Origin: Hydrogenothermus marinus | Lineage (GTDB): Bacteria > Aquificota > Aquificia > Aquificales > Hydrogenothermaceae | Direction of reading: 5' to 3' | NCBI RefSeq assembly: GCF_003688665.1 | Contig: NZ_REFO01000017.1 | Span: forward strand, 1 to 41,485 | DNA length: 41,485 nt | Shown here: in pieces, positions 90 to 41,485 of the stretch | How the letters are laid out: every line of letters starts with the position of its first letter | Numbering within the stretch: the first letter of the stretch is position 1 | Program-made: the position numbers and the translations under genes | Notes under the pieces: generated by a model | Seen by the model: only the letters and a program-made list of their open reading frames with translations | Told to the model about the DNA's origin: nothing | Database searches by the model: none

Positions 90-821
90 TTATTTCCTTA
101 ACCTTCTCTTTAATTTTAGAATCTCTTCTTCCCCTATTATTTTTATTTCTTTTTCTTTTAGATCACCTAATTTTATATTTCCAATTTGGATTCTCAATAA
201 TCTTTTTACAGGATATCCAAATTTCTTAAAAAATCTTCTAAGAATTCTTTTTTGGCCACTATGTATTTCTATTTCTACTGTAGTACTTTTTTCATCTTTT
301 TTTAAAATTTTCACTGAATCTGGTTTTAAAAAAGTGTCTTCTAGTTTGGTTCCTTTTTTTATTTTATTGAAATCTTTAGCATTTATTCTGCCTTCAACTT
401 TTAATATATATTTTTTGGGAATTTTGAAAGATGGATGCATTAATTTGTATGCAAATTCTCCATCGTTTGTTAGAATTAAAAGTCCTTCCGAATCTAAATC
501 TAATCTTCCTACTGGAAATACTTTTTCTTTAAAATTTATTTCTTTAAAAAGATCTGTTAAAGTTTTTCTACCAAATTTATCTTTACCTAAGGCAGTTAGA
601 TATCCTCTTGGTTTATAAAGTTTATAATATACTTTTTTAGAAATAGGTTTTAAAATTTTTCCTTCTACTTCTACTTTATCTTTGCTTGGGTCTATTTTTA
701 TACCAAGTTCTGATACTTTTTGACCATTAACTTTGACTTTTCCTTCTTTTATTAGAATATCGGCTTTTCTTCTTGAACAATATCCTGTAGATGCAATAAA
801 TTTATTTAGTCTTTCTTTCAT
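90..821 (-). CDS. rluB: RsuA/RluB-family rRNA pseudouridine synthase
   Basis: This 243-aa protein isomerises a uridine in rRNA to pseudouridine. An N-terminal S4 RNA-binding domain (about residues 3-60, MKERLNKFIASTGYCSRRKA) is followed by the RsuA/RluB catalytic domain. The catalytic-loop motif GRLDLDSEG is at about 105-113, with the presumed nucleophile Asp108. Length and order fit RluB/RluE/RluF rather than the longer RluA/RluC group; the exact target uridine cannot be told from sequence. The ATG start at 821 overlaps the end of rsmG by 20 nt, so it is the last gene of the operon that begins at 3034. It runs convergently into the 5S rRNA gene. Confidence 0.92.
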   Translation of the reverse strand: MKERLNKFIASTGYCSRRKADILIKEGKVKVNGQKVSELGIKIDPSKDKVEVEGKILKPISKKVYYKLYKPRGYLTALGKDKFGRKTLTDLFKEINFKEKVFPVGRLDLDSEGLLILTNDGEFAYKLMHPSFKIPKKYILKVEGRINAKDFNKIKKGTKLEDTFLKPDSVKILKKDEKSTTVEIEIHSGQKRILRRFFKKFGYPVKRLLRIQIGNIKLGDLKEKEIKIIGEEEILKLKRRLRK

Positions 822-1434
822 GTTTTTCTATTACTATAAATTTTCTTGAAGGGTAATTCTTAAATTCTATTTCTATAGTAAAAGGTTTAACTTCTTCTTC
901 TATTTTTTGTCCTTTCATTATTATTAAATAGCCTTTATTTTTTAATAAATTTTTACCTATTTTTAAAACTTCAAAAGTTTCTCCTGTAGCTCTACTTACA
1001 ACAATATTAAACTTTTCTTTTATATTTTCAGCTCTATCACATATTACATTATATTTTAAATTTAACTCTTTTCTAAGCATTTCAAGAAATATACATTTTT
1101 TTTGTATAGAATCTATGAGATAAAGTTCTATCTTGTCTTGATAATAAATTTTTAAAGGTACTCCCGGAAAACCACCACCTGTGCCAAAATCTGCTATTGT
1201 TTTATTTGTAATATCTATGTTTTTTATTTCAAAAAGTTTGACAAGTGTTAAACTATCAAAAAAATGTTTTTTAACTACTTCTTCTTTTTTTCTAATGGAA
1301 GATAGGTTATAAACTTTATTCCATTTCATATACATAGACAGATATTTGTCAAAAAGTTCTATTTGCTTTTCTGAAAAATTTATACCATTTTGGTTGCAAA
1401 GTTTTATTAGTATTTCTATCTCTTTATTTTCCAT
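802..1434 (-). CDS. rsmG: 16S rRNA (guanine-N7)-methyltransferase RsmG
   Basis: RsmG (GidB) methylates N7 of G527 of 16S rRNA using S-adenosylmethionine. The 210-aa length matches the family. The SAM-binding glycine loop is ADFGTGGGFPGVPLKI at about residues 81-96, followed by the acidic strand ELYLIDSIQKK and the family pattern VVSRATGETFEVLKIG. The N-terminal YLSMYMKWNKVYNLSSIRKK segment is the typical RsmG substrate-side helix. Its ATG overlaps the ogg stop codon by one base (TAATG), which suggests translational coupling. Loss of RsmG gives low-level streptomycin resistance in other bacteria (known of the family). Confidence 0.95.
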   Translation of the reverse strand: MENKEIEILIKLCNQNGINFSEKQIELFDKYLSMYMKWNKVYNLSSIRKKEEVVKKHFFDSLTLVKLFEIKNIDITNKTIADFGTGGGFPGVPLKIYYQDKIELYLIDSIQKKCIFLEMLRKELNLKYNVICDRAENIKEKFNIVVSRATGETFEVLKIGKNLLKNKGYLIIMKGQKIEEEVKPFTIEIEFKNYPSRKFIVIEKHERKTK

Positions 1435-2102
1435 TATTTTAAAACTTTTTTTGTTTTTATATAAAAGATATAAAGATCTAATTCTGCTTGGGTCAATTTA
1501 AAATCTTTGGCTATCTTTTCTAAAGCTTCTTCACATTCAAGATAAACTTTTTTTGTAATAGTTTTCCTTGGCTTTACAAGACCTTTTTCAAATAAAAATC
1601 TTGATATATGTCTATCTATTATTGCAACATCATCAAAACCTATATTCCTTAAAAAATGGCTTGCCTCTTTATATCCATATCCATATATTTCTTTTACTAA
1701 TTTCTCTCTTGCTTTTTTACCATCTTTTTCTTTTGCTATATCTAAAAGGAAATTTTCTTTTTCTCTAAGCTTTACAATTCTTTCTGCTCTTTGCATGGCA
1801 AATCTATGTCCATGTTCTCTGATTTTCTCATAAAGATCTTTTAAGTCTAAATTTTTAAAACCTTTTATTCCTATAGACTTTTGAATTTTTATTCCCATAG
1901 CAGCAGAAGAATTAGCAGTTAAAATGCAAAAACAAGCCTCTGAAAATATATCTGCTTGATAAGGCTCAATATCTAAGAAAGGTCTAAAGTTAAAAGTAGT
2001 AAGATTTTTGCTTTTTAGATTTTTAAACTCTTTTATTCTTTGGTCTACATATTTTTTAACTTCAGAAATAGCTTTTTCTATCTCTTCCTTTGGTGGTATC
2101 AA
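1434..2102 (-). CDS. ogg: N-glycosylase/DNA lyase, Ogg2 type (8-oxoguanine repair)
   Basis: This is a 222-aa helix-hairpin-helix GPD glycosylase of the Ogg2 type found in archaea and thermophilic bacteria. It should excise 8-oxoguanine and cut the backbone by its lyase activity. The hairpin GYGYKEASHFLRNIGF (about 141-156) carries the presumed catalytic Lys145, and IIDRHISRFL carries the presumed Asp163. The protein lacks the extra N-terminal domain of Ogg1 and the C-terminal FeS motif of EndoIII. The start is TTG at 2102-2100, overlapping the RodZ-like stop codon (TTGA), with AAAGGA about 7 nt upstream; no in-frame ATG would preserve the N-terminus. Confidence 0.88.
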   Translation of the reverse strand: MIPPKEEIEKAISEVKKYVDQRIKEFKNLKSKNLTTFNFRPFLDIEPYQADIFSEACFCILTANSSAAMGIKIQKSIGIKGFKNLDLKDLYEKIREHGHRFAMQRAERIVKLREKENFLLDIAKEKDGKKAREKLVKEIYGYGYKEASHFLRNIGFDDVAIIDRHISRFLFEKGLVKPRKTITKKVYLECEEALEKIAKDFKLTQAELDLYIFYIKTKKVLK

Positions 2103-37943: not shown

Positions 37944-39476
37944 TTATGGTTTTGTTCCTCCTAAGGCTCCTAACATATATTTAAGATAATTATCTGTAAA
38001 TTGAAGTCCACCACCTATATAAAATCCTCTATTTTTTTCAGCAATTAAATCAGAACCACCAAATTTAACAAAAAATGGTGTTTTACCGAATTTATAATAT
38101 ATACCAGCATCAAATTCAGGTTTATCTGTGCCATAAGTTTCATATTCTCTATTAAATTTATAAAGATCTGTTGTAATTCTGAAATTTTTAGTAAACCACC
38201 AATCTAAACCACCTGCTCCTGTATTTTCTTTTAAACCAGCTCTTACCCATAAATTACCATATTTTGTTTCCCATAATCTTCTTGCATACTGAATATCAAA
38301 TAAAATACCATAATCTTTTTTTGTTTCACGTTTTGTGGTACCATTTTGAGTATATTCATTAATTTCACTAATAGAACCATTAGAGTTAGAAAGAAGTCCT
38401 ACATAAATATATCTATCATTTTTAGGGAAAAGAGATACAGATATCCCTGCTTTATCATCTTTATTTCCAGTATGATGTTCTCCATACATAGATATTTCTA
38501 AGTTTGATTCATCTATAATTTTGAATGGTTTTGATATTGATTTAACACCTTCATTTACATTATTATATAAACTATCATCATTTACAAGTTTTCCTACTGT
38601 TCCTTTACCTTTATCTATTTTTGCAAGTATTTTATCTAGCTTTTCTGTTGCTTTTTTTATGTTTTCTAAGGATTTTCTTATATTATCTTTATTTTCTCCA
38701 AGTATATCTTTTGCTTCTTTTGAAGCTACATTCAGATTATCCATTGTTGTAGGTAATTTTTCTTTCAATGTTTTAGTTATTTCTCTTAAAGATGCAACAA
38801 TATCTCTAATATCATTTTTATTATCTGATGTTATTTGATCAAGATTATCTGCTACTTTATCCATTTTTTCAATTAAAGAAGGTAATGTTTCTTTTAAAGA
38901 TGCTGTTATCTGTTGAATATTATCAACTGTTTTCTTTATATTTTTTCTATTTTCTGCTACTAAATATTTTGTTTCAACTGCTAAACTATCTATATCTTCT
39001 ATTAGTTTTTGAAGTCTCCCGTTTCCTATTGCTTGGTTAATATTATCTACAAGCTGTGAGACTTTATTGAATGCTTCATCTGTTGAACCATAAGTAGTTC
39101 CATACTGGATTATTCCGCCTTTTGATAAAACTCCATATTCAGGACTACCTGGTTCTATATAAATATATTTATCCCCCATAAGCCCAAGCATCTTTATATA
39201 AGCTTTTGCATTTTGATATAAAGTTATATCTTTCATAAAACCTATTTTTACTTTTACTTTATTACCTTCTATAGTAATATCATCTACTTTTCCAGCTTTT
39301 ACACCTTTTACAACTACATCTGCCCCTTTTGAGAGGCCGCTAACATCATCAAAATATATATAATAATTAGCTACTGATTTACTAAATCCATTAGATTCAA
39401 AAGTAATTATTAAATATCCTGCTAAAACTGCTGTTAAAAGAACAAAAAGCCCTACTTTTATTGCTATAGTATTCAT
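37944..39476 (-). CDS. MCE (MlaD-family) protein with coiled coil and C-terminal beta-rich domain
   Basis: This 510-aa protein has an N-terminal membrane anchor (about 5-25), one MCE domain (about 37-126, YIYFDDVSGLSKGADVVVKG and YIKMLGLMGDKYIYIEPG), a long coiled region (about 135-320) with the MCE-family motif KGTVGKLVNDDSLYNNV, and a C-terminal domain (about 323-510) of alternating hydrophobic strands (for example YIYVGLLSN, GILFDIQYARRLW, FFVKFGGSD, GFYIGGGLQF). That domain could be an outer-membrane barrel, so the protein might span the periplasm and carry lipids. MlaE, MlaF and MlaC genes are not in the window. Its ATG overlaps the DHQ-synthase stop by one base. Confidence 0.87.
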   Translation of the reverse strand: MNTIAIKVGLFVLLTAVLAGYLIITFESNGFSKSVANYYIYFDDVSGLSKGADVVVKGVKAGKVDDITIEGNKVKVKIGFMKDITLYQNAKAYIKMLGLMGDKYIYIEPGSPEYGVLSKGGIIQYGTTYGSTDEAFNKVSQLVDNINQAIGNGRLQKLIEDIDSLAVETKYLVAENRKNIKKTVDNIQQITASLKETLPSLIEKMDKVADNLDQITSDNKNDIRDIVASLREITKTLKEKLPTTMDNLNVASKEAKDILGENKDNIRKSLENIKKATEKLDKILAKIDKGKGTVGKLVNDDSLYNNVNEGVKSISKPFKIIDESNLEISMYGEHHTGNKDDKAGISVSLFPKNDRYIYVGLLSNSNGSISEINEYTQNGTTKRETKKDYGILFDIQYARRLWETKYGNLWVRAGLKENTGAGGLDWWFTKNFRITTDLYKFNREYETYGTDKPEFDAGIYYKFGKTPFFVKFGGSDLIAEKNRGFYIGGGLQFTDNYLKYMLGALGGTKP

Positions 39477-40474
39477 TATTTTTCTATTATAGTTTCTTCA
39501 ACTTTCATTCCAAAGTGTCTGCCGGCTTCTTCTACATAGCCTAAAATCTCATCTCCAATTTTTAAATCTACAACAGAAACCAAAGAACCATCTGATTTAA
39601 CTAATCTAATTGTTTCTGCATTTTGAAGGACTGCTGAAAGTTTTTTACCATTATATTCTGCTTCTACTAAAAGCATAGGTCTTCTTTCTATTTTTGATCT
39701 TCCTACATAAACAACTCTTCCATTTCCTTCAGTATCATAAACCATTACTTCACTTCCTGTTTTTAACTCACATAAATAAACTGTTTTTCCATTTGGAACT
39801 TTTGTATACATATGGACAGCTCCAGCATTTACTCTAAAAGGCCTTGATGCTACATATGGACTTTCTTCTGTTTCTGCATGAACAAAGATCATTCCTGCAG
39901 AAGAATTTCCAACAAGCATTCCTTCTCCTCTTTTTAAAAGAGAAGTAGTATCAACTGCTACTCTATCTCCCATTCCTACCGGTGTTATTGAAATAACTTT
40001 GGCTTTTACTAAATTAACTTTTTCTGTTTGCTGTTTTATTTCATTTGAAACTTTTTTAATTATATTAATATCATTTGTTTGTAAAACAACACCTTTTACA
40101 CCTTTTTCAAGAATTGCTATTGCTGTAGCTGCTTCTTCTTCATTTTTTACTACAGAATATATATTATCTGATTGGGCTATAAGATTTTCTAAAGGGATTA
40201 TAGTCCAGTCTGTAGTTTCCACTATTACTTTTTTCCCTGCTTTTGCTAATGATGCTGCCTTTTCTTCATCTTTTTTATTTTCTATTCTTATTAAAACAAA
40301 ATCATCTGATAAATTTCCATCTTTGTCTATAGATATAAATTTTATTCTTCCAAGTTTTTTTGCATCTTCTAATTTTTCTTTTGGTACTATTATTGCATCT
40401 GCTCCACTTTCTATAGCAGTAGTAATTATTACTTTATTAAAATTTTTAGAGGCATCTACAATAAACTCTTTCAT
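39476..40474 (-). CDS. 3-dehydroquinate synthase, class II (archaeal type)
   Basis: The 332-aa enzyme belongs to PF01959. In the alternative early shikimate route found in methanogens and some thermophilic bacteria it forms 3-dehydroquinate from 2-amino-3,7-dideoxy-D-threo-hept-6-ulosonate by oxidative deamination with NAD (known of the family). Family signatures are TTDWTIIPLENLIAQ, ISITPVGMGDRVAVDTTSLL, RGEGMLVGNSSAGMIFVHAE and ASRPFRVNAGAVHMYTKVPN. The start ATG at 40474 follows AAAGGGG. No partner aldolase (ADH synthase) is in the window. It is unrelated to classical AroB in sequence. Confidence 0.93.
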   Translation of the reverse strand: MKEFIVDASKNFNKVIITTAIESGADAIIVPKEKLEDAKKLGRIKFISIDKDGNLSDDFVLIRIENKKDEEKAASLAKAGKKVIVETTDWTIIPLENLIAQSDNIYSVVKNEEEAATAIAILEKGVKGVVLQTNDINIIKKVSNEIKQQTEKVNLVKAKVISITPVGMGDRVAVDTTSLLKRGEGMLVGNSSAGMIFVHAETEESPYVASRPFRVNAGAVHMYTKVPNGKTVYLCELKTGSEVMVYDTEGNGRVVYVGRSKIERRPMLLVEAEYNGKKLSAVLQNAETIRLVKSDGSLVSVVDLKIGDEILGYVEEAGRHFGMKVEETIIEK

Positions 40475-40524: not shown

Positions 40525-41175
40525 TTAAGATGATTTTTTGAAAATAACTATTATTGCTAATCCAAATAGATACTTCTTCTTATATATGCATTCAAAGTCA
40601 TTTTTTTTAAATAACTCTTCAAGTTCCTCTATAGATTTAGCCCATTTTATACTATCTATAAAATAATCATACTCTTTTTTAGAAAATATTAATCTTCCAA
40701 AAGGTTTAAAAATTTTGTCAAATAAAAAAAGTAATAATTTATTTTTACTTAAATCTAAAATAGAGACATATCCATTTTTCTTTATTACTCTTTTTAGTTC
40801 TTGAGTAGTATTTTCTTGATTTAGATGTCTAAAAACAAGAGAGAAAAATATATTATCTATACTCTTATTTTTAAAAGGTAAATTTTCAGCATCTGCAATT
40901 AATAAATTTGCATTTGGTACCTTTTCTTTTGCTTTCAATAGCATATTTTTTGAAACATCTATTCCAATTAACAAACTATTATTATTTTTATCATTAATCT
41001 TTTTTAATATTTCACCAGTTCCAGTTCCAATATCAACAATATTTTCCCCAAGTGGTGTTTTTTCTATAAGATTGTTTTGAAGTTTATGTATATATCCAAA
41101 AGTAATAAAGTTTAAGAAGATATCATATGTTTTAGAAACAGAATCAAAAATTTTAGATGCTATATTTGTACTCAT
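40525..41175 (-). CDS. UbiE/MenG-like SAM-dependent methyltransferase
   Basis: The 216-aa class I methyltransferase resembles UbiE/MenG, which methylates the quinone ring late in ubiquinone or menaquinone synthesis. It opens ASKIFDSVSKTYDIFLNFIT, has motif I IVDIGTGTGEILKKI (about 46-60), the acidic GIDVSKNMLLKAKEKV and the UbiE-like DAENLPFKNKSIDNIFFSL. The C-terminal half (KIFKPFGRLIFSKKEYDYFI) is close to the family but less conserved, so a different lipid or metabolite substrate is possible. The ATG is at 41175 with GAGAG upstream. An IS element lies about 90 bp upstream on the same strand. Confidence 0.82.
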   Translation of the reverse strand: MSTNIASKIFDSVSKTYDIFLNFITFGYIHKLQNNLIEKTPLGENIVDIGTGTGEILKKINDKNNNSLLIGIDVSKNMLLKAKEKVPNANLLIADAENLPFKNKSIDNIFFSLVFRHLNQENTTQELKRVIKKNGYVSILDLSKNKLLLFLFDKIFKPFGRLIFSKKEYDYFIDSIKWAKSIEELEELFKKNDFECIYKKKYLFGLAIIVIFKKSS

Positions 41176-41268
41176 ATTAACTCTCTAGTTTTTTACAACT
41201 GATATTAAAAATATAATAATTATTCCTAAAAAAAAGTTTAATTTTATTAGACTTAAAATTTTAGTTAA

Positions 41269-41358
41269 GTGAACTACTCCGCCCTTACGGACAGAGCTTC
41301 TGAGGGATTTTGACAGCTTAACGCTGTCCTTATCCCTCCTGGCAGGTTCACGCTGCCA
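41269..41358 (-). ncRNA. Candidate omega-RNA (guide RNA scaffold) of the TnpB element
   Basis: The last 90 bases of the element fold as nested hairpins on the minus strand: TGGCAG/CTGCCA (41358-41353 with 41345-41340), GAGGGAT/ATCCCTC (41338-41332 with 41308-41302) enclosing GACAGC/GCTGTC (41328-41323 with 41317-41312), and CTCTGTCC/GGGCGGAG with a GTAA loop (41296-41277). The scaffold would end at TTCAC and the guide would be the flanking AT-rich bases from 41268 down. The 5' end is not determinable; coordinates are the structured core only. Confidence 0.6.
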
Positions 41359-41485
41359 ACTACTCCTATCCCCTCATCAAGCAGGGATTCGGAGATACCT
41401 TTTAGTCTGTAAAGCCGCATCTTTACTACCTTCTTTAATCCTGTTATAAGGTCAAACCACTTTTTCTTAAACTTCCTTAAGATGT
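41274..41485 (-). CDS. tnpB: TnpB-type RNA-guided nuclease, C-terminal fragment (truncated by window edge)
   Basis: One frame is open from the window edge to TAG at 41276-41274, giving 69 residues. The start ILRKFKKKWFDLI is likely the NIL segment that directly follows the RuvC-III Asp-x-Asn motif in TnpB proteins; the tail SEALSVRAE fits the long GC-rich tails of IS200/IS605-type TnpB. The catalytic domains and zinc ribbon would lie beyond 41485, so activity cannot be judged. The fragment is visible only by manual translation. Transcription is toward the UbiE-like gene. Confidence 0.7.
   Translation of the reverse strand, partial: ILRKFKKKWFDLITGLKKVVKMRLYRLKGISESLLDEGIGVVGSVNLPGGIRTALSCQNPSEALSVRAE

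What the first reader, a model, noticed from the sequence alone, without database searches (positions are those of the whole stretch)
41269..41485. Right end of an IS605-type TnpB element with a readable omega-RNA scaffold
A 69-codon open frame running off the window edge, nested perfect hairpins and a TTCAC end form the signature of a TnpB/omega-RNA unit in an AT-rich genome. The coding tail and the guide scaffold are the same DNA. If the boundary is right, the guide begins TTAACTAAAATTTTAAG, which is the DNA just upstream of the UbiE-like gene. The thermophilic host makes a heat-stable RNA-guided nuclease plausible.
Basis: partly seen in the sequence, partly recalled or inferred. Interest (0 to 1): 0.62.

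Follow-up and report, generated by a model that had tools for sequence, protein, structure and literature searches.

The report
Right end of a TnpB transposon
The last 217 bases of this contig are the tail of a small jumping-DNA element that encodes a TnpB RNA-guided DNA cutter and its guide RNA in the same stretch; the element is real and interrupts a membrane-protein gene, but it belongs to a known and common class.

Summary
The observation and the interpretation both hold. Window 41269-41485 (- strand) is the right end of a tnpB-only IS200/IS605-superfamily element; the contig stops inside it. The 69-codon frame is residues 403-472 of a TnpB whose other pieces lie at further contig ends of the same assembly (C13 residues 3-220; C18, C14), so about 182 codons are lost in an assembly gap. 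Intact relatives (about 474 aa, 73-74% identical over this tail) match the curated RNA-guided TnpB model, and one folds onto solved TnpB structures. The tail RNA folds far better than shuffles (z -6.8), with compensatory changes at 20 of 29 pairs across 25 relatives. The end (GTTCAC, 41269) is confirmed by an empty-site test: contig C14's flank plus the window's flank rebuild, in frame, a 139-aa membrane protein that is intact in a sister species. Target: TTTAT | TTAACTAAAATTTTAAG. Corrections: the 'guide' DNA is the 3' end of that interrupted gene; the family lacks CxxC motifs and has the shifted RuvC-II glutamate; no tnpA is assembled here. New member of a known kind; solo guide-RNA mini-elements in related Aquificota are the most interesting by-product.

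The parts
41269..41485 (-). right part of a tnpB element (right end at 41269; contig breaks at 41485 inside tnpB)
   Evidence: four copies in the assembly share this unit and this end; empty site
41274..41483 (-). C-terminal 69 codons and TAG stop of TnpB; the stop codon lies inside the last 9 nt of the RNA scaffold
   Evidence: matches residues 403-472 of intact TnpB L033 at 74% identity, E 1.1e-23
41269..41396 (-). omega-RNA (reRNA) scaffold core, 128 nt
   Evidence: fold z -6.8; 20 of 29 pairs with compensatory changes, 91.7% of cells paired against 33-46% in slid controls
41363..41394 (-). scaffold stem-loop 1
   Evidence: predicted in the window sequence; not in the RNAalifold consensus of the 25 right ends, so unsupported by covariation
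41339..41359 (-). scaffold stem-loop 2
   Evidence: 99% of cells paired, compensatory changes at 3 pairs
41302..41338 (-). scaffold stem-loop 3 with inner hairpin 41312-41328
   Evidence: compensatory changes at 4 outer and 5 inner pairs
41271..41300 (-). terminal stem-loop (tight hairpin 41276-41297), followed by the 3' end
   Evidence: compensatory changes at 8 pairs; two sister copies have 2 extra bp made by insertions in both arms
41249..41268 (-). predicted guide / target: TTAACTAAAATTTTAAGTCT
   Evidence: immediate flank; preceded by TTTAT in the reconstructed empty site
41185..41268 (-). 3' end of the interrupted membrane-protein gene (LTKILSLIKLNFFLGIIIIFLISVVKN*)
   Evidence: joins in frame with the contig C14 ORF; intact homologue in G005
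40525..41175 (-). UbiE/COQ5-like methyltransferase, next gene downstream
   Evidence: Pfam PF01209 E 4.5e-25

Best explanation
The stretch is the right end of a roughly 1.5-kb tnpB-only element of the IS200/IS605 superfamily, broken by the contig end. Its DNA encodes both the C-terminal tail of TnpB and the scaffold of the guide (omega) RNA. Shown: the end, the coding tail, the conserved RNA structure, and insertion directly 3' of TTTAT without target duplication. Inferred from ISDra2 TnpB: TnpB binds the RNA cut from the 3' end of its own transcript; the about 16-20 nt past the element end (TTAACTAAAATTTTAAG) act as guide; the complex cuts TTTAT-TTAACTAAAATTTTAAG, which exists only when the element has left, so the element is restored from a sister copy and kept in the genome. 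Movement itself would need a Y1 transposase in trans, and none is assembled here.
For: Six pieces of one TnpB in the own genome; both halves are closest to the same intact proteins, 67-73% identical; the relative passes NCBIfam guided_TnpB, 144 bits against a cut-off of 100; an AlphaFold2 model of the L129 protein, 83% identical to L033 (pLDDT 80), matches TnpB 8h1j (TM by target 0.76) and 8iaz (0.72); RNA covariation; RNA model R1 finds the scaffold in 64 of 136 genomes of the phylum; empty site; TTTAT before the left end in C13, C14, C18 and L033; Y1 tnpA next to the same kind of TnpB in relatives. Mechanism: PMC8612924.
Against: About 182 central codons, holding the RuvC-II Glu and RuvC-III Asp, are not in the assembly, so an intact enzyme is not shown in this organism. 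One left half (C18) carries a deletion and a stop, and the C6 and C15 tails have broken frames, so part of the set is decayed. No RNA reads or activity data are available. RNA-guided cutting has not been tested for this subfamily in anything read here.
Confidence: 0.93

Rival explanations
1. It is a dead remnant: the element end is real, but no functional TnpB or guide RNA is made in this organism any more.
For: C18 copy deleted with a stop; C6 and C15 tails with broken frames; no tnpA and no complete tnpB assembled.
Against: The window copy and the C11 copy keep the tail frame open at 99% identity and the C13 N-terminal half is open to the contig end; the missing middle falls at contig ends of the repeat, which points to an assembly gap rather than a deletion; C6 and C15 keep and even lengthen the terminal stem with paired insertions.
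Confidence: 0.3
2. The tail is only a structured right end recognised as single-stranded DNA by a Y1 transposase, and not a guide RNA.
For: IS605-type ends carry subterminal hairpins (family knowledge); left end and right end share the hairpin tip CCGTAAGGG.
Against: Stem-loops 2 and 3, upstream of the terminal hairpin, also covary, which end recognition would not need; the fold lies in the same place as the ISDra2 reRNA (PMC8612924); Rfam sot0042 matches over 125 nt at E 1e-5, though below its gathering score.
Confidence: 0.04
3. An ordinary coding tail or stable terminator-like fold with no link to TnpB.
For: The tail alone matches no Pfam or NCBIfam model.
Against: 74% identity to the end of an intact TnpB and the other half of the protein in the same assembly; exact shared end in four copies.
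Confidence: 0.01

Closest known systems
ISDra2 TnpB and its reRNA (IS200/IS605, Deinococcus radiodurans; PMC8612924)
   Same: 3' end of tnpB overlaps the guide-RNA scaffold; guide comes from the flank past the right end; insertion 3' of a pentamer (TTGAT there, TTTAT here); same fold
   Different: here the RuvC-II Glu is at the alternative position, no zinc ribbon, other scaffold sequence, no tnpA in the copy
TnpBs with the alternative RuvC-II glutamate (Ealt), related to Fanzors (PMC10711439)
   Same: invariant Glu in the (D/E)ESYTS-type motif, about 48 residues after the canonical site
   Different: RuvC-I of the window's own subfamily is DYG rather than DPG, and the CxxC pairs that mark the position there are missing
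tnpB elements of Desulfurobacteriaceae and of phage-like contig L129 (IMG/VR)
   Same: about 81-84% identical to one another, 70-77% identical to the main pieces in this genome; L033 and L129 share the SVRAE tail
   Different: other host families; some carry tnpA beside tnpB (G120, G129)
Rfam sot0042 (sense overlapping transcript)
   Same: aligns over the whole scaffold on the same strand
   Different: 30 bits against a gathering score of 88, so not a member by Rfam's rule

Membership tests
TnpB (RNA-guided endonuclease family) | whole-protein match to the curated TnpB model | tested here: met
   intact relative L033: NF040570 guided_TnpB 144 bits, cut-off 100; the own N-terminal half reaches 51 bits as a fragment, below the cut-off
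TnpB (RNA-guided endonuclease family) | RuvC triad Asp / Glu / Asp | tested here: inconclusive
   in this genome only RuvC-I Asp (AIDYGINN, C13) is assembled; in relatives D209, E354 (alternative site) and D396 are invariant
TnpB (RNA-guided endonuclease family) | zinc-ribbon CxxC pairs between RuvC-II and RuvC-III (present in typical TnpBs, not required by the curated family model) | tested here: not met
   absent in the alignment of the intact subfamily, although the Pfam TNB domain still matches above cut-off (PF07282)
TnpB (RNA-guided endonuclease family) | structured RNA overlapping the 3' end of tnpB and ending at the element boundary | tested here: met
   z -6.8 and covariation; end at 41269
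TnpB (RNA-guided endonuclease family) | RNA-guided DNA cleavage next to a TAM | not testable with these tools
   needs biochemistry; TTTAT is the predicted TAM
IS200/IS605 superfamily element | precise insertion 3' of a short fixed target, no target duplication | tested here: met
   TTTAT precedes the left end in C13, C14, C18; the C14 and window flanks join without gain or loss of codons
IS200/IS605 superfamily element | subterminal hairpins at both ends | tested here: met
   left-end and right-end hairpins with the same CCGTAAGGG tip
IS200/IS605 superfamily element | Y1 tnpA transposase (absent in the recognised tnpB-only group) | tested here: not met
   no PF01797 in the own assembly and tnpB follows the left end directly; tnpA sits beside the same kind of tnpB in G120, G129, G045, G006, G102, G032

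The most novel reading that the evidence does not exclude
In this phylum the guide-RNA scaffold has become a mobile unit of its own: about 330-bp mini-elements with only the two ends and the scaffold (7 in complete genome G045 beside 5 full tnpB copies; similar ones in G107; a solo tail in C15 here) supply guides in trans to one resident TnpB lacking a zinc ribbon, so that one enzyme guards many insertion sites.
Probability: 0.35. Interest if true: 0.55.

Novelty: new member of a known kind. Interest (0 to 1): 0.33.

Why it matters
It gives a tnpB system from a (probably thermophilic) Aquificota lineage with a defined TAM candidate, scaffold, boundary and natural target, from a subfamily that lacks the zinc ribbon and uses the shifted glutamate. 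The related mini-elements offer a natural test of whether guide RNAs without a nuclease gene are served in trans.

Tried and rejected
Pfam searches of the own genome for PF07282, PF01385 and PF01797 gave nothing; this first suggested that no tnpB exists, but the conserved domains fall in the assembly gap. The tail alone hits no protein family. Rfam at E <= 1 gave sot0042 below gathering and HgcC and RT-18 at chance level; none is claimed. The first alignment of the four copies made the C15 copy look longer; it is a solo fragment about 190 bp long. The organism could not be named: records of the window's genome may be left out of genome contigs. In the Aquificales ncRNA survey PMC4227106 a search of the main text for transposase and IS605 found nothing. 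One paper search found none that describes these mini-elements; most subscription papers are not in the library.

Full report
Observation. The window ends inside a repeat. The 69-codon frame 41274-41483 (-) is open to the contig end. The same unit occurs four times in the own 1.6-Mb, 18-contig assembly: C17 (window), C11 and C6 at contig ends that break at the same base, and C15 as an internal copy about 190 bp long. All four copies stop at the same base (window 41269...AGTAGTTCAC on the - strand) and their flanks differ, so the boundary is real. The stretch has 45% GC in a 26% GC window and folds far better than shuffles, z = -6.2 for 217 nt and -6.8 for the 128-nt core.

The missing protein. 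Family searches of the own genome with the core TnpB domains were empty. A DNA search of relatives led to a TnpB-like protein in G056 whose end resembles the window's tail, and a protein search of the phylum gave a family of 440-500 aa proteins. The contig-end comparison then showed left parts of the same element at the ends of C13, C18 and C14. With intact relative L033 (G125) as query, the own genome shows C13 residues 3-220 (70% identity), C18 residues 112-220, and tails 403-472 in C11, C17, C6 and C15. Residues 221-402 are in no readable contig; they fall where contigs break, so they are most simply a collapsed repeat. Both halves pick the same best relatives.

Identity. L033 matches NCBIfam guided_TnpB at 144 bits, cut-off 100. 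An AlphaFold2 model of the phage-contig protein L129, 83% identical to L033, has mean pLDDT 80 and matches solved Cas12f and TnpB structures, including TnpB-omegaRNA 8h1j (TM by target length 0.76). In that model residues 431-472, which correspond to most of the window's frame, are below pLDDT 50; this fits a tail whose DNA is kept for its RNA rather than for its protein (inference). Residues D209, E354 and D396 are invariant. The canonical RuvC-II position is occupied by an invariant Gly (G306), and the invariant Glu is in the (D/E)ESYTS-type motif, which is the alternative glutamate position described in PMC10711439. The CxxC pairs are missing.

The RNA. An alignment of 25 right ends supports 29 pairs in four helices; 20 pairs have compensatory changes, 91.7% of cells are paired, and sliding the partners by 1-3 columns drops this to 33-46%. 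Two of the five shuffle measures (number of pairs with a change on both sides, number of pair types) are not exceeded; the three cell-based measures are, with 0 of 500 shuffles reaching them. Within the own genome C6 and C15 carry 2-nt insertions in both arms of the terminal stem: the helix is 2 bp longer while the reading frame is changed. A covariance model built from these ends finds 64 of 136 phylum genomes at E <= 1e-4; the sequences used for building match by construction.

The boundary and the target. C14's left flank carries an ORF that stops within the element; the window's right flank reads LTKILSLIKLNFFLGIIIIFLISVVKN* on the - strand. Joined without any added or lost base they give one 139-aa frame that runs codon for codon along the 142-aa membrane protein intact in G005. 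TTTAT also precedes the left end in C13 and C18 and in the L033 element. The flank is therefore the 3' end of an interrupted gene; the UbiE-like gene starts 93 bases from the element end.

Mechanism. Shown: the coding and RNA overlap, the precise site, the absence of a target duplication. Inferred from ISDra2 (PMC8612924): the flank serves as guide, TTTAT as TAM, and cleavage of the vacated site favours retention of the element. No Y1 transposase is assembled; relatives of the same kind of TnpB do have tnpA next to it (G120, G129, G045, G006, G102, G032; positions). The copies here are tnpB-only and would need help in trans to move. The closest relatives lie in another family, which is Desulfurobacteriaceae judging by an apparently identical protein in a named record, and one sits on a phage-like contig, so transfer between families is likely (inference). 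The host family is probably Hydrogenothermaceae (inference from kinship and GC; not named by any tool).

By-product. In complete genome G045 the model finds 12 scaffolds: 5 belong to full tnpB genes and 7 to mini-elements of about 330 bp that share a left end of about 60 bp and a right end of 136 bp with the full copies and have no tnpB; G107 has similar ones. Whether their RNAs act as guides in trans is open.

Verdict. The feature is a well-delimited but ordinary member of a known class, with a few features (alternative glutamate, no zinc ribbon, mini-elements) worth a specialist's look.

Noticed in passing
L103-L109 (G045) and L113-L119 (G107): Mini-elements of about 330 bp with only left end, spacer and guide-RNA right end, 7 in G045 against 5 full tnpB copies; possible stand-alone guide RNAs.
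   Followed up: partly
L008:2951-3145 (G000:C15): Solo right-end fragment next to a truncated EAL-like gene, left end and tnpB lost; the terminal stem is 2 bp longer than in the window copy.
   Followed up: partly
L007 (G000:C6): The C6 copy of the element lies next to what looks like a type III (Cmr-like) CRISPR effector gene set; several contig ends (C4, C6, C15) carry CRISPR-like repeats.
   Followed up: no
L129:2501-3919: Phage-like IMG/VR contig carries a TnpB 83% identical to L033, with the same SVRAE tail, plus a second, distant TnpB-like ORF at 259-1773 (-).
   Followed up: partly
window 39476-40474 (-): 3-dehydroquinate synthase II (PF01959, E 1e-126), an enzyme type best known from archaea.
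   Followed up: no
G000 contigs C8 and C9: Two short contigs read entirely as N (withheld), so the missing tnpB middle cannot be excluded there.
   Followed up: no
window 41256-41360 (-): Chance-level match to Rfam HgcC (E 0.38) whose 3' part resembles the terminal hairpin; worth asking whether HgcC RNAs sit at tnpB ends.
   Followed up: no
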